A program made the translations under genes and the position numbers. Of a DNA stretch of 64,000 bases, positions 24,165 through 36,063 are shown one piece after another. How positions within the stretch are numbered: position 1 is the stretch's first letter; each line of letters begins with the position of its first letter. The notes beneath the pieces were generated by a model. It did no database searches and had not been told where the DNA came from. It was given only the letters and a program-made list of their open reading frames with translations. The DNA comes from Lysobacter niastensis. Lineage in GTDB: Bacteria > Pseudomonadota > Gammaproteobacteria > Xanthomonadales > Xanthomonadaceae. The stretch is taken from contig NZ_JADLZT010000001.1 in the NCBI RefSeq assembly GCF_015453285.1, positions 248,001-312,000 on the forward strand, in the 5' to 3' direction.

Positions 24165-24419
24165 TCACCGGGGTGCGTCGGCGCCCTGCACGAACATCAG
24201 CTGGAAGCCCCGCTTGAGCTGCTGGTCACGCGCGCTTTCGAGCGCGGTCATGGCGCTGGCGTGGTCGAGGAACTGTTCCCTGCGCAGCGTGCTGCGGCCG
24301 CCGATCTGGCCGGACTCGCGCACCAGCGTCCAGCCGCCGAGGAGGTCCGGCTGCAGCATCAGTTGCACGAAGCGCGGGGCTTCGCGGCCGTCCGGACGTT
24401 GTTGCAGGAGCAGGCGCAT
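24165..24419 (-). CDS. WGR-domain-like small protein
   Basis: An 84-residue protein whose core FVQLMLQPDLLGGWTLVRES followed by GQIGGRSTLRREQF and a helix region matches the WGR domain, found in PARPs and in many free-standing bacterial proteins of unknown role. It starts 41 bp after the aroB stop. A TACAAT box (24426-24431) lies 6 nt before the ATG, which has no Shine-Dalgarno, so it may be made from its own leaderless mRNA. Confidence 0.8.
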   Translation of the reverse strand: MRLLLQQRPDGREAPRFVQLMLQPDLLGGWTLVRESGQIGGRSTLRREQFLDHASAMTALESARDQQLKRGFQLMFVQGADAPR

Positions 24420-24425
24420 GGCGGG

Positions 24426-24431
24426 ATTGTA
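24426..24431 (-). promoter_or_regulatory. -10 box of a probable leaderless promoter (WGR gene)
   Basis: On the minus strand TACAAT is followed by 6 nt (CCCGCC) and then the ATG at 24419. Transcription would start at or next to the start codon. No ribosome site is visible. The -35 is not clear. Confidence 0.5.
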
Positions 24432-25564: not shown

Positions 25565-26142
25565 GAAGGAATACTCCTTTGGCGGCAGGCGGCGGCGAAG
25601 GGCCAGTGGACCTCCAGCAGTCGCGCGAGATGTTCGGCGGTGTCGGTCTCGGAATGACCGTCGGTGTCGAATTGCAGGTGCGCGACTTGCGCATACAACG
25701 GCGCGCGCACTTCGGCCAGGCCGCGAAGGATCCGTTCGCGGTCGCCATGGGCGAGCAGGGGACGGGTGCGATCCTGCGCCAGGCGTTGCAGTTGCTGGTC
25801 GACGCCGGCCTGCAGGTACACGACGAATCCCCGCTCGCGCATCAGCGATCGATTGGCGGCATCCAGCACCGCACCGCCGCCCGTGGCCAGCACCAGGCCT
25901 TCGTCCTGCAGGAGTTCGGCCAGTGTGGCGCGCTCGCGCGTGCGGAATCCTGCCTCGCCTTCGCTTTCGAAGATCTGGTTCACGCTGCAGCCTGCGCGCG
26001 ATTCGATCTCGCGGTCCGCGTCGGCCAGGCGCAATCCGAAATGCTCGGCGAGGCGCCGGCCGATGCTCGATTTTCCGGATCCCATCGGGCCGACCAGGAC
26101 CAGATTGGAGACGCCGGGGCGTGGGGCGCTGGCGGAAGTCAT
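25561..26142 (-). CDS. aroK: shikimate kinase
   Basis: A 193-residue P-loop kinase that makes shikimate 3-phosphate. Walker [10 protein letters not shown] starts at residue 18, the shikimate-binding [19 protein letters not shown] follows, then [15 protein letters not shown] (Walker B region) and the lid DRTRPLL. Starts after this ATG match the family length; there is no Shine-Dalgarno, but TACAAT sits 6 nt before the ATG. First gene of the aroK-aroB operon. Confidence 0.97.
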
Positions 26143-26148
26143 GGCGCG

Positions 26149-26154
26149 ATTGTA
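26149..26154 (-). promoter_or_regulatory. -10 box of a probable leaderless promoter (aroK)
   Basis: TACAAT on the minus strand, then CGCGCC and the aroK ATG at 26142. The 6-nt gap places the transcript start at the start codon. A possible TCGACA lies further upstream (26175-26180) but with a long 20-bp spacer. Confidence 0.5.
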
Positions 26155-26487: not shown

Positions 26488-27318
26488 TCAGGCCAATGGA
26501 CGCCGCTGCGCGTCCAGGGGCAGTACGAGATCGGCGAGCCCGGGCAACGTGCGCAGCGCCTGGCGGCTGACGCGCTCGAACAACTGCACGAAGCGATCCA
26601 TTTGCGGCCGCGACATGCCGCGCCGCGGGGACGGAGCGTTGGCCTGCATGGCCGCTTCCTGCTCCCACCGCCATCCGGGCACGATCTCGAATCCCGGAGG
26701 CTGCAGGAACAGCAGGCGATCCAGCCGCGACCACAGCGCCGGGTACTCGCGGGCGAGGGCGTCGTTGCAGTACCGGCGCCACGATCCGTCCGGGTCTTCG
26801 TCGCGCTCCACCGCGTTCAGCGATTCCCGCAACTCGCCGGGCGCCTGTGGCGGTGTTTTCAGGAACCAGCCCTCGAACAGCACGAGGTCGGCGGCGGACA
26901 CGGGCTTCCAGCGCGACGGCGGCAGGCGAGTGTCGGCGAGCTTGTCGAAGCGGGGCAATCGCACGTGCCCGCCTGCACGCAGCCGGTCGAGCACGTCGCA
27001 GGCGAGGGCGACATCGTGGGTGCCCGGCGGCCCGCGCGTGGCGAGCAGCGGGTGCACGTCCCGTGCGAGGCGCAGACGTTCGCGGCGGCCGAGGTAGACG
27101 TCGTCGATCGACAACGTGGCCACGCGCAGCCCGCGCCGCGCCGCCATCGCGCCGACCTGCGCGGCGAGCGTGGACTTGCCGGAGCCCTGCAGGCCAGCAA
27201 TGGCATAGACGCGCGCGCCATGGACGAGCGCATCGTCGAGGACACGGCGGACGATCTCGTCGCCGAATCCGGCGGTATGGGGAGCGGCGGGTGAGGAAGG
27301 GTGCAGCCGTGGCGACAT
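26488..27318 (-). CDS. P-loop kinase, D-glycerate 3-kinase-like (Tda10 family)
   Basis: A 276-residue protein with Walker [10 protein letters not shown] at residues 42-50 and later [32 protein letters not shown] and VLFEGWFL, the layout of the YGR205/Tda10 and plant glycerate kinase family. Likely reaction: D-glycerate to 3-phosphoglycerate, or a related small-molecule phosphorylation. The start at 27318 is only 17 bp from the divergent pdxH start. No Shine-Dalgarno; TATTGT lies 6 nt upstream. Confidence 0.85.
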
Positions 27319-27323
27319 CGGCC

Positions 27324-27330
27324 CACAATA
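27324..27330. promoter_or_regulatory. overlapping divergent -10-like boxes between glycerate-kinase-like gene and pdxH
   Basis: The two start codons are separated by 17 bp (27319-27335). In it CACAAT (27324-27329) lies 6 nt before the pdxH ATG, and on the other strand TATTGT (27330-27325) lies 6 nt before the kinase ATG. The boxes overlap by 5 bp. Both -35 regions would fall in the opposite coding sequence. Neither gene has a ribosome site. Confidence 0.45.
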
Positions 27331-27335
27331 TCGCA

Positions 27336-27938
27336 ATGACGACAGCCCCCCTGCTCAGTGAAGCCCTCGCCACGTTCGCGCAGTTGTTCGAGGAAGCGCG
27401 CATCGCCGGCGAGCCCGACCCCACCGCGATGACCGTCGCCACGGCCTCGCTCGATGCCCGCCCGTCCGCGCGAACGGTGTTGTTGAAAGCGTTCGACGAG
27501 CGCGGCTTCGTGTTCTACACGCACCTGGACGGGCGCAAGGGCCGCGAACTGCAGGCCAATCCGCATGCGGCGCTGCTGTTCCACTGGCCGCGTGTCCGCG
27601 ACGGCGTGCAGGTGCGCATCGAGGGTGCGGTCCAGATCGTCGGCGACGACGAGGCCGATGCCTATTTCGCCTCGCGGCCGCGCGGAAGCCAACTCGGTGC
27701 GTGGGCATCGAAACAGTCGGAGACGCTGGAATCGCGCGCGGCCTTCGAACAGCGACTGGCGCAGGCCGAGCACGAGTTCGCGGGCCGCGACGTGCCGCGC
27801 CCCGCGCGCTGGACCGGGCTGCGCGTGCGCCCGGAGATGATCGAGTTCTGGTACGGCGCGGATTTCCGCCTGCATGAGCGCCAGTGCTACGAAGCCGATG
27901 TGGCCGGCGAATGGCGCAAGAGGATGCTCTATCCGTGA
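27336..27938 (+). CDS. pdxH: pyridoxamine/pyridoxine 5'-phosphate oxidase
   Basis: A 200-residue FMN enzyme that oxidises PNP or PMP to PLP, the last step of vitamin B6 synthesis and salvage. Motifs: [20 protein letters not shown] (FMN phosphate and PLP site), [41 protein letters not shown] and the C-terminal [17 protein letters not shown] ending WRKRMLYP. Length is a little short of the E. coli enzyme, as usual in this group. Probably leaderless. Confidence 0.97.
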
Positions 27939-28047: not shown

Positions 28048-28053
28048 GACAAT
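28048..28053 (+). promoter_or_regulatory. -10 box of a probable leaderless promoter (BtuF-like gene)
   Basis: GACAAT followed by TCGCGC and the ATG at 28060, a 6-nt gap. No ribosome site precedes the ATG. The -35 is not clear. Confidence 0.42.
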
Positions 28054-28059
28054 TCGCGC

Positions 28060-28854
28060 ATGGGACCGCAACGCATCGTCTGCCTGACCGAAGAACCGAC
28101 CGAGACGCTGTACGCGCTCGGCGAACAGCACCGCATCGTCGGCATCAGCGGCTTCACCGTGCGCCCGCCGGTGGCGCGCAAGGAAAAGCCCAAGGTCAGC
28201 GCCTTCACCAGCGCGAAGATCGGCGAGATCCTCAAGCTCCAGCCGGACTTCGTGATTGGCTTCTCCGACATCCAGGCCGAGATCGCCGGCGAACTGATCC
28301 GCCACGGCATCGAGGTGTGGATCAGCAACCACCGCAGTGTCGAGGGCATCCTCGACTACATCCGCCGGCTTGGCGCGATGGTCGGCGCGGCGGCGAAAGC
28401 GAACGCGTACGCGGACGAACTGCAGCGAGGGCTGGACGCCATCGCGGCGGAGGCGGCCAGGCTGCCGTGCCGCCCGAAGGTCTATTTCGAGGAGTGGGAC
28501 GAGCCGCCGATCACCGGCATCCGCTGGGTGGCGGAGCTGGTCCGCATCGCAGGCGGCGACGACATCTTCCCGGAACGCGCCGCCGAGCCGCTGGCGAAGC
28601 AGCGCATCCTCGAAGACGCCTCGGAAGTGGTGCGGCGTGCGCCCGACATCGTGTTCGGATCGTGGTGCGGCAAGAAATTTCGCCCGGACAAGGTCGCCGC
28701 ACGTCCCGGCTGGGATGCGATCCCGGCGGTGCGCGACCGCGAACTGCACGAGATCAAGTCGCCGCTGATCCTGCAGCCCGGGCCCGCGGCATTGAGCGAC
28801 GGAGTGCGGGAGATCGCGGGCGTGATCCAGGCTTGGGCGCGGCGGCATGGGTAG
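28060..28854 (+). CDS. BtuF-like periplasmic-binding-fold protein without signal peptide
   Basis: A 264-residue protein of the helical-backbone substrate-binding family (BtuF/FepB fold): RIVCLTEEPTETLYALGEQHRIVGISG, then KIGEILKLQPDFVIGFSD, an EEWDEPPITGIRWVAELVRIAGG and WDAIPAVRDRELHEI. Family members bind cobalamin or siderophores for ABC import. Here the conserved fold begins at residue 4, with no room for a signal peptide or lipobox, and no ABC transporter genes are adjacent. It may act in the cytoplasm. The likely leaderless ATG supports this start. Confidence 0.85.
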   Translation: MGPQRIVCLTEEPTETLYALGEQHRIVGISGFTVRPPVARKEKPKVSAFTSAKIGEILKLQPDFVIGFSDIQAEIAGELIRHGIEVWISNHRSVEGILDYIRRLGAMVGAAAKANAYADELQRGLDAIAAEAARLPCRPKVYFEEWDEPPITGIRWVAELVRIAGGDDIFPERAAEPLAKQRILEDASEVVRRAPDIVFGSWCGKKFRPDKVAARPGWDAIPAVRDRELHEIKSPLILQPGPAALSDGVREIAGVIQAWARRHG

Positions 28855-34281: not shown

Positions 34282-35988
34282 TTACGGCTGCGTGCTGGCG
34301 TACTGCGACAGGCCCAGCACCTCGAGCCCCTGGTCGAAGCGGATGTCGACCGGGATCTTCGCGTCCTTCAGGCGTGCCAGGTCCGAAGCGAGTTCGGGCT
34401 TGATGACGCCCATCGTCGCGGTCATGCGCTTGGCCTCGGCGTAGTCGCCGTCGCCCTGCACGGTCAGCAGCTTGGCGCTGAGCGCGTTCATTGCCGAGCG
34501 CATCTTCTCGAAGTCGACGCGGTAGCGGCCATCGGCGTCACGGGTGAACGCGCCGCGTTCGGCGAAGAAGTTGAAGCGCACCATGTTGGCCTTGCCATGC
34601 GCGTCCGCGGCGCCGAAGCGCACCGAGCGCAGGATGCCGGCGAGGAAGGTGACGTAGCCGTCCATCAGCTTGGTCTTGTCGAGTTCACCCTGCTCGCTCA
34701 GCGCGTCGATCATGTACAGGCCGAGGATGTCGGCCTTGCCCTCCTCGAAGCTGGAGGCGTACTCCTTCAGCGCTTCGTCGACCGTGCCCTTGCCGTCGAG
34801 AGTCTTCTTGATGCCCAGGCCGTGCGCGACCTCGTGGAACATCACGTCCTCGAAGAATGCATCGAAGGTGACGTGCTTGAGCTGGTCCTGGGCGATCAGC
34901 TGCTGCGCGATCGGCATCAGGATCGCGTCGAACTTCGCCTTCATGACGTTTTCCAGCTGCAGACGGCGCGTGCCTTTCTTCAGCTGGACTTCCTCGTCGT
35001 TGGGCAGGTTGATCGCGATGGTCTTGGCGCCGACGTTGGCGTTGCCGCCGTAGTACACGGCCTGGTACGCGTTGAGGTCGGCATTGGAGCCGGGCGTCTC
35101 CGCCTTGTACTTCCCATCGACCGGCAGCCCCTTCTGCAGCGCTGGCAGCAGCTTGGCGAAGCGCGCCAGCTTCTGGCTCCATTCGATGTCCTTGATCAGC
35201 ACCAGGCCTTCGTAGGCAGCCTTATATCCGAACAGCTGGTCCTCGTAGGTCTCGATCGGACCGATGACGACATCGACCGGATTGGTCTTCATGTCCATCC
35301 AGGCCAGGTCGCTGGGGCGGAAGTCGTCCGACAGCAGCGCGTCGGCGCGCATGGCCAGGTAGCTCGCGAACGCCTGGTCGGCGCTGAGCTTCGACGCCTC
35401 GCGCAGCAGAGCGGCGGCGCGCTCCAGTTCGGCGCGGTACGCCTGGTGATAGGGCTCGGTGATCAGCTTGCCGGCCGCGTCGCGGCGAAGCAGCGTGTAG
35501 TTGGAGGTCTTGTCCGGCAGCGAGGCAGCCTCGAACTCTTCCTTGGTCATGTCCACGGGATAGAACGGGCCGCCCGGCGGACGCGCCCCCACACCGGCGA
35601 TGAACGGCTTGTCCTCGTTGAGGCGGTCCCACGGGCCGAAGTTGACCTCGACCAGTTCGCGCGTGGCGGCATCGGGGGCGCGTGCGAGCAGTTGATCGCG
35701 GTCGCCGTCCCACGATTGCTTCCAGTAGATCGCGTTCATCACGCCGCTGGCTTCGACCAGCCTGGCGATCATCTGTCGCGTACGTTCATCGAACTTCGAC
35801 AGATCGGCCTTCAACGGAACGCGGGCGTAATCGCCGGCGTGCTCCGCGGCGTAGGCGCTGGCGGCATCGGGCGCGGGCTGCGCCGGTGCCGTGCTCGCGG
35901 CCGGCTCCGGGGCCTGGCGTTGACAGGCGGCCAATGCAATGACGGCGAGGCAGGCGAAGGCGAGGGGGCGCAGGGACAATGCAGGCAT
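34282..35988 (-). CDS. peptidase M49-like (dipeptidyl-peptidase III family) lipoprotein
   Basis: A 568-residue protein with a signal peptide, lipobox LAAC near residue 21 and an Ala/Pro linker. The zinc site is H385-E386-V-A-H389 with EEGKAD at 415-420, the second glutamate motif of M49 enzymes. Typical DPP III enzymes have HExxxH, with one extra residue; here the spacing is the normal HExxH. The mature part begins with [17 protein letters not shown]. It probably removes dipeptides in the periplasm. The ATG at 35988 gives the signal peptide directly. Confidence 0.87.
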
Positions 35989-36063
35989 GACGGTGCGGTC
36001 GATTTCGGGGCCAATCGCCATCCTACGCCGCGGGCCAAGGCCGCGCGATCACACGCCGCGCGA

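What the first reader, a model, noticed from the sequence alone, without database searches (positions are those of the whole stretch)
27319..27335. 17-bp divergent gap with overlapping -10-like boxes (glycerate-kinase-like gene / pdxH)
Only 17 bp separate the two divergent start codons. CACAAT on one strand and TATTGT on the other share 5 bp, each 6 nt before its own ATG. Neither gene has a ribosome site. This is the geometry of a symmetric bidirectional promoter feeding two leaderless mRNAs, so the two genes would compete for one opening event and each -35 would lie in the other's coding region.
Basis: partly seen in the sequence, partly recalled or inferred. Interest (0 to 1): 0.55.

Follow-up and report, generated by a model that had tools for sequence, protein, structure and literature searches.

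The report
Shared promoter starting two divergent genes
A 17-base gap between two oppositely facing genes holds one shared promoter that most likely starts both messages right at their start codons, and the same arrangement is kept across many related bacteria, which makes it a compact and testable case of two-way transcription.

Summary
The start codons of a GLYK-like kinase (minus strand, A of ATG at 27318) and pdxH (plus, 27336) are separated by 17 bp; CACAAT and TATTGT share five bases, each ending 6 nt before its own ATG.

Comparison shows it is no coincidence. Of 150 pdxH loci read in the family, 84 have the divergent kinase. By reading frames alone, 40 of those (14 genera) have a 17-bp gap, and all 40 carry ACAATA while every other gap column varies. 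The base needed only by the kinase's -10 is A in 77 of 81 core-bearing loci with the kinase and 9 of 51 without it.

The geometry is that of published bidirectional promoters: start sites 18 bp apart, reciprocal -7T/-11A, opposite -18T. A conserved RTGC inside kinase codons 5-6 may be pdxH's upstream element.

No RNA ends were measured. I file it as a doubly leaderless variant of a known promoter kind that may recur at other gene pairs in the family.

The parts
27319..27335 (.). 17-bp intergenic gap holding the whole shared -10 region
   Evidence: same length, both genes in frame, in 40 of 84 kinase-pdxH loci of the family
27324..27329 (+). pdxH -10 hexamer CACAAT (-12 to -7 if the message starts at 27336)
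   Evidence: A[CG]AAT found in 81 of 84 loci with and 51 of 66 without the kinase
27325..27330 (-). kinase -10 hexamer TATTGT (TANNNT type)
   Evidence: ACAATA in 40 of 40 loci with the 17-bp gap; 27330 is A in 77 of 81 core-bearing kinase loci and 9 of 51 without the kinase
27336..27336 (+). predicted pdxH transcription start = A of ATG; on the other strand it is the kinase promoter's -18T
   Evidence: Inference from -10 spacing and published geometry; not mapped
27318..27318 (-). predicted kinase transcription start = A of ATG; on the other strand it is the pdxH promoter's -18T
   Evidence: Inference from -10 spacing and published geometry; not mapped
27301..27306 (+). conserved GTGCAG (RTGC) at -35 to -30 of pdxH, 17 bp before its -10, inside kinase codons 5-6: candidate -35 or activator contact
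   Evidence: TGC at this spacing in 65 of 81 core-bearing kinase loci and 24 of 51 without the kinase (12 of these 24 still carry the CAT); background 34 of 1377 positions
26488..27318 (-). GLYK-like P-loop kinase gene (276 aa)
   Evidence: 7xpc D-glycerate-3-kinase E 2.9e-16
27336..27938 (+). pdxH, pyridoxamine 5'-phosphate oxidase (200 aa)
   Evidence: TIGR00558 E 8.2e-71, above its cut-off; PF01243 and PF10590

Best explanation
The gap is a bidirectional promoter with one shared -10 element, and both transcripts start at the A of their own ATG, so both mRNAs are leaderless. RNA polymerase can bind in either orientation; the same A:T pairs act as -11A for one gene and -7T for the other. Each start codon doubles as the transcription start and supplies the -18T of the opposite promoter, which fixes the two ATGs 18 bp apart. 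The kinase direction has the full TANNNT -10 but no recognisable -35. The pdxH direction lacks -12T and is probably helped by the RTGC element at -35 to -30, embedded in kinase codons 5-6. Shown here: the sequence, its conservation, and that the kinase-side base goes with the kinase gene. Inferred: the start sites, the leaderless state, the role of RTGC, and polymerase binding in two orientations.
For: ACAATA in 40 of 40 loci (14 genera) whose 17-bp gap was defined by reading frames only, while all 11 other gap columns vary. Base 27330 is A in 77 of 81 core-bearing loci with the kinase and 9 of 51 without; by genus majority 30 of 33 vs 3 of 17, and in the four genera holding both states 14 of 14 vs 0 of 7. 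The pdxH box persists without the kinase: A[CG]AAT-N6-ATG in 25 of 51 core-bearing kinase-less loci. Shine-Dalgarno-like words before pdxH: 0 of 41 kinase loci with ATG at 6 nt, against 10 of 37 kinase loci without it. Published geometry: 18 bp, reciprocal -7T/-11A, opposite -18T (PMC10268837 passages; PMC12825309 introduction). Leaderless genes with TANNNT about 12 bp before the start are reported for Xanthomonadales (PMC3160421 passages). In own sequence TA...T lies 6 and 7 nt before ATG 30 and 21 times, against 3-15 at other spacings.
Against: No transcription start site was mapped. Related loci are not independent: the tree-corrected test had only 5 supported pairs (mean 3.9 the same way, 0.0 opposite, median p 0.125). 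44 of 84 kinase loci lack the in-frame 17-bp form. Three of 84 have no core found, and four of 81 with a core lack the A. The consensus scan finds no sigma-70 promoter here. In the own genome the minimal symmetric pattern is not in excess over the T..A control (8 vs 9 sites).
Confidence: 0.84

Rival explanations
1. The box is the kinase's leaderless promoter only; pdxH is mainly read from an upstream promoter inside the kinase gene and has a leader.
For: pdxH lacks -12T in all 81 kinase loci with a core; in 31 kinase loci the next in-frame pdxH ATG lies 20 or more nt past the core.
Against: Most kinase-less loci with a core lose the kinase-specific A (42 of 51) yet keep the pdxH box, 25 of 51 at exactly 6 nt from an ATG; Shine-Dalgarno-like word before pdxH in 0 of 41 kinase loci with ATG at 6 nt.
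Confidence: 0.09
2. ACAATA is a regulator binding site or other DNA signal, and the resemblance to -10 boxes is secondary.
For: Invariance in 40 of 40 loci is very high for a -10 element; the RTGC element at fixed distance could be a second regulator contact.
Against: The outer base follows the presence of the kinase gene as a -12T would; spacing to each ATG is that of leaderless -10 boxes (PMC3160421 passages).
Confidence: 0.04
3. Chance juxtaposition of two AT-rich hexamers in a short gap.
For: The minimal symmetric pattern occurs 8 times in this genome, no more than its T..A control at 9.
Against: Conservation in 40 loci of 14 genera.
Confidence: 0.01

Closest known systems
Prokaryotic bidirectional promoters with a pseudo-symmetric -10 (Warman, Grainger and colleagues; PMC12825309, PMC10268837)
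   Same: Start sites predicted 18 bp apart, reciprocal -7T/-11A, A at +1 and T at -18 on each strand.
   Different: Both RNAs here are predicted leaderless coding mRNAs, so start codons, start sites and -18T coincide. The word 'leader' does not occur in PMC12825309 (find), nor 'leaderless' in PMC10268837 (find).
Leaderless genes with a TANNNT box about 12 bp before the start codon (Zheng et al. 2011, PMC3160421; authors recalled, passages seen)
   Same: Xanthomonadales are named there with Legionellales as the gammaproteobacteria where they are most found; TATTGT-N6-ATG fits.
   Different: In the passages seen, single promoters are described; here two share one box. pdxH has CACAAT, without the first T.
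acrA/acrR and soxS/soxR bidirectional promoters of E. coli (PMC12825309)
   Same: One core promoter serving a divergent pair.
   Different: Those pairs have known activators; none is known here, and the pair is two enzymes.

Membership tests
Bidirectional promoter (Warman/Grainger) | Divergent start sites 7-25 bp apart, mostly 18 | not testable with these tools
   Predicted 27318 and 27336, 18 bp apart; no RNA ends available
Bidirectional promoter (Warman/Grainger) | -7T and -11A of the two promoters reciprocally base-paired | tested here: met
   A27325:T and T27329:A serve both, if each message starts at its ATG; both invariant in 40 of 40 loci
Bidirectional promoter (Warman/Grainger) | T at -18 opposite the other gene's +1 A | tested here: met
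   Supplied by the opposite ATG, assuming start at the A of ATG
Bidirectional promoter (Warman/Grainger) | Transcription in both directions shown | not testable with these tools
   Needs RNA or in vitro data
Leaderless gene | TANNNT about 12 bp upstream of the start codon | tested here: inconclusive
   Kinase TATTGT meets it; pdxH CACAAT lacks the first T
Leaderless gene | No Shine-Dalgarno sequence | tested here: met
   GGAG, GAGG or AGGA in 0 of 41 loci on either side, this locus included
Leaderless gene | 5' end of the mRNA at the AUG | not testable with these tools
   No 5' end data held
Canonical sigma-70 promoter | -35 TTGACA at 16-18 bp | tested here: not met
   0 found; best match in the window at spacers 15-19 is 2 of 6 for pdxH and 1 of 6 for the kinase

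The most novel reading that the evidence does not exclude
The family of this genome (Xanthomonadaceae/Lysobacteraceae) uses a recurrent module, the doubly leaderless bidirectional promoter: two divergent start codons exactly 18 bp apart, each being transcription start, translation start and the -18T of the opposite promoter, around one shared -10. It would occur at several unrelated gene pairs, and at this locus kinase codons 5-6 would be under dual selection as protein and as pdxH's upstream promoter element.
Probability: 0.5. Interest if true: 0.62.

Novelty: new variant of a known kind. Interest (0 to 1): 0.5.

Why it matters
Bidirectional promoters were described mostly through start-site mapping, often with a non-coding partner RNA (PMC10268837 passage). 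Here both products would be leaderless mRNAs of enzymes, so promoter geometry could be read from annotation alone as the distance between divergent start codons. Natural presence and absence of one partner gene gives an evolutionary test of which bases serve which direction. It also makes testable how one -10 is tuned for two leaderless genes that cannot use Shine-Dalgarno strength to adjust output.

Tried and rejected
Genome-wide excess of the minimal symmetric pattern CAT-N6-ANNNT-N6-ATG in the own genome: rejected, 8 sites (4 for the pattern read backwards) against 9 for the T..A control (2 backwards). Two of the 8 (this one and L155) lie between two ORFs of more than 140 codons with GC-rich third positions, none of the 9.

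Control pattern CAT-N5-ATNNNAT-N5-ATG for the family: a poor control, since it hits in-frame codons (92 of 159 genomes); I therefore also changed the gap length.

First count of exact loci (41): it fixed A, A, A and T of the core by the search word, so invariance of those letters was partly built in, and one of the 41 (L125) has its 6-nt ATG out of the pdxH frame. Replaced by the count from reading frames alone (40 loci). still use the 41.

A genome-wide RTGC or TTG -35 motif for leaderless genes: not seen in 46 own-genome sites, so RTGC looks specific to this locus.

Tree-corrected test of the kinase/base association: underpowered, 5 supported pairs.

Protein coding as the sole cause of the RTGC conservation: disfavoured, because TGC stays at the same spacing in 24 of 51 core-bearing kinase-less loci. 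But 12 of these 24 still carry the CAT and may be recent losses; without them it is 12 of 39.

Literature: searches for bidirectional or divergent promoters with leaderless mRNAs, for leaderless start sites in Xanthomonas, Stenotrophomonas or Lysobacter and for pdxH with glycerate kinase in Xanthomonas showed nothing on point in the titles and abstracts listed; I opened three papers only (passages or sections). The main 2021 paper on bidirectional promoters is not held and is known here only as cited by PMC12825309 and PMC10268837.

Full report
What is there. The plus strand from 27316 to 27338 reads CAT, 17 bases, ATG. The minus-strand gene, 26488-27318, is a P-loop kinase of 276 residues whose best solved relative is a D-glycerate-3-kinase (7xpc, E 2.9e-16). 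The plus-strand gene, 27336-27938, is pdxH (TIGR00558). CACAAT (27324-27329, plus) and TATTGT (27330-27325, minus) overlap by five bases and each ends 6 nt before its ATG. The genome is an unnamed 4.03-Mb assembly; the nearest named pdxH relatives are mostly Lysobacter species, the best at 85% identity (which may leave out the genome itself).

Is the leaderless reading sensible here? In 450 kb of own sequence (the window plus the 20 stretches), TA...T lies 6 and 7 nt before ATG 30 and 21 times, against 3-15 at the other spacings from 0 to 15. ACAAT lies at 6 nt 9 times, against 0-3 elsewhere. Genome-wide, ACAAT-N6-ATG occurs 32 times and the same pattern read backwards 2 times, but ACAAT-N9-ATG occurs 20 times against 5 backwards, so the raw count is a modest argument. 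[quoted passage not shown]

Conservation. A search of 159 family genomes with PdxH found 155 with a match; the listing was cut at 150 rows and I read those 150 loci. A divergent kinase lies next to pdxH in 84. In the other 66 neither tblastn nor a profile found it in the stretch held, which is more than 1.2 kb upstream in all but L091 (168 bases); it may lie elsewhere in those genomes. Taking only the reading frames, 40 of the 84 (14 genera) have ATGs 17 bp apart; the next commonest gap is 40 bp, in 7. In all 40 the columns 27325-27330 read ACAATA, while each of the other 11 gap columns varies. Among 80 named loci, 66 have the divergent kinase and 31 of these the 17-bp pattern, including L. 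antibioticus, L. enzymogenes, L. soli and six Luteimonas; one locus has the pattern without a detected kinase; these probably overlap in part with the 150.

Where the form is lost. A core A[CG]AAT was found in 81 of 84 kinase loci and 51 of 66 others. CAT stays exactly 6 nt away in 70 of the 81. Of the 39 kinase loci with a core but no ATG at 6 nt, the next in-frame pdxH ATG lies 20 to 67 nt past the core in 31, at 5 nt in 2, and none was found downstream in 6. Shine-Dalgarno-like words before pdxH occur in 0 of 41 kinase loci with ATG at 6 nt and 10 of 37 without; in kinase-less loci 1 of 25 and 5 of 25 (loci without an in-frame ATG and L125 were dropped, and the choice of start in moved loci is crude).

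A natural experiment. Base 27330 is outside the pdxH hexamer but is the -12T of the kinase. It is A in 77 of 81 core-bearing loci with the kinase and in 9 of 51 without, where it is mostly G (41). By genus majority it is A in 30 of 33 with and 3 of 17 without; in the four genera holding both states it is A in 14 of 14 with and 0 of 7 without. On a PdxH tree only 5 supported independent pairs exist, the base moving the same way in 3.9 on average and the opposite way in 0.0, median p 0.125: consistent but underpowered.

Upstream element. No TTGACA-like -35 was found in either direction. In the 41 pattern loci T27302 is invariant and G27303 and C27304 are kept in 95%, inside kinase codons 5 and 6. 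TGC sits at this distance from the pdxH -10 in 65 of 81 core-bearing kinase loci and 24 of 51 kinase-less ones (9 of 17 genera), against 34 of 1377 positions at other distances. Twelve of those 24 still carry the CAT 6 nt from the core, so part may be inheritance from a lately lost kinase; without them it is 12 of 39. This favours a DNA element for pdxH over protein constraint alone. It was not seen as a general motif in 46 leaderless-type sites of this genome, so it may be a weak -35 or a specific activator contact. In the kinase direction no column at the mirrored position stands out.

Comparison with what is known. In the Grainger group's papers bidirectional promoters have start sites on opposite strands 7-25 bp apart, most often 18, with reciprocal -7T/-11A and a -18T opposite the other's +1 A (PMC10268837, passages seen; PMC12825309, abstract, introduction and passages seen). 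If both messages here start at the A of ATG, all of this fits, and start codon, start site and the opposite -18T are the same bases. Those authors found basal activity of all five tested promoters too low for polymerase competition, so competition should not be assumed here.

Is it a class? In the same 159 genomes, CAT-Nx-TANNNTA-Nx-ATG gives 5 sites for a 15-bp gap, 49 for 17, 18 for 19 and 9 for 21. The patterns read backwards give, by my hand count of the tables' forward column, 29, 24, 15 and 23. So 17 bp is the only length well above its control. Both flanking ORFs look coding in 0 of 5, 16 of 49, 4 of 18 and 3 of 9 sites, and in 0 of the 30 fetched sites of the AT..AT control. The 16 fall into five sequence-linked groups (19 bp: two groups; 21 bp: two, with doubtful ORFs), so counted by groups the excess at 17 bp is modest, and many raw sites are not between genes. 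Pfam gives domains on both sides for serine dehydratase / glutaredoxin-like, class I tRNA synthetase (E/Q) / metallophosphoesterase, FMN reductase / ArsR-type regulator, ABC-F-type ATPase / DEAD helicase (its domain starts only at residue 73, so that start is unsure) and ABC-F-type ATPase / sodium-proton exchanger; one more pair has an IF-2B-family protein and a partner without a family. The own genome has a second minimal example, class II aldolase / HiPIP (L155). The present locus (CACAATA) is not itself in the TANNNTA set.

Age. In 121 genomes of the order, 47 have the kinase. In family code f12, 16 have it and 13 were fetched; in all 13 pdxH is still adjacent and divergent, but with other spacings and sequences. 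Among the loci examined, the 17-bp ACAATA form was seen only in this family.

Verdict.

Noticed in passing
27301-27306: RTGC element 17 bp before the pdxH -10, conserved inside kinase codons 5-6 and in part of the kinase-less relatives; may be a -35 or a regulator contact.
   Followed up: yes
24417-24430, 26140-26153, 27325-27338, 28049-28062, 35976-35989: Five of the 32 ACAAT-N6-ATG sites of the 4-Mb genome lie within 12 kb of this window, in front of a shikimate kinase gene, pdxH and a periplasmic-binding-protein gene among others.
   Followed up: no
L155:1501-1523: Second 17-bp divergent pair in the same genome, class II aldolase / HiPIP, with TAAACT 6 nt before the plus-strand ATG.
   Followed up: partly
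L424, L426-L430, L433-L435, L438: In another family of the order (f12) a conserved stretch [CT]TAGCATC lies in or near the kinase 5' end upstream of pdxH (10 of 13 f12 loci, by eye), resembling an extended -10; genus g91 (L427, L433, L438) also shows CAT, 6 to 8 nt, AGCATA at the kinase start.
   Followed up: no
L312, L313, L315, L325-L327, L392: ArsR-type regulator and ArsH-like FMN reductase genes face each other across the same 17-bp geometry; the core may also be the operator (Pfam run on L313 only).
   Followed up: partly
L396, L399, L400, L402, L403, L406: In genus g7 a recurrent CATCGCGCTACTATA site at 17-bp ATG spacing without two coding-like ORFs; nature unknown.
   Followed up: no
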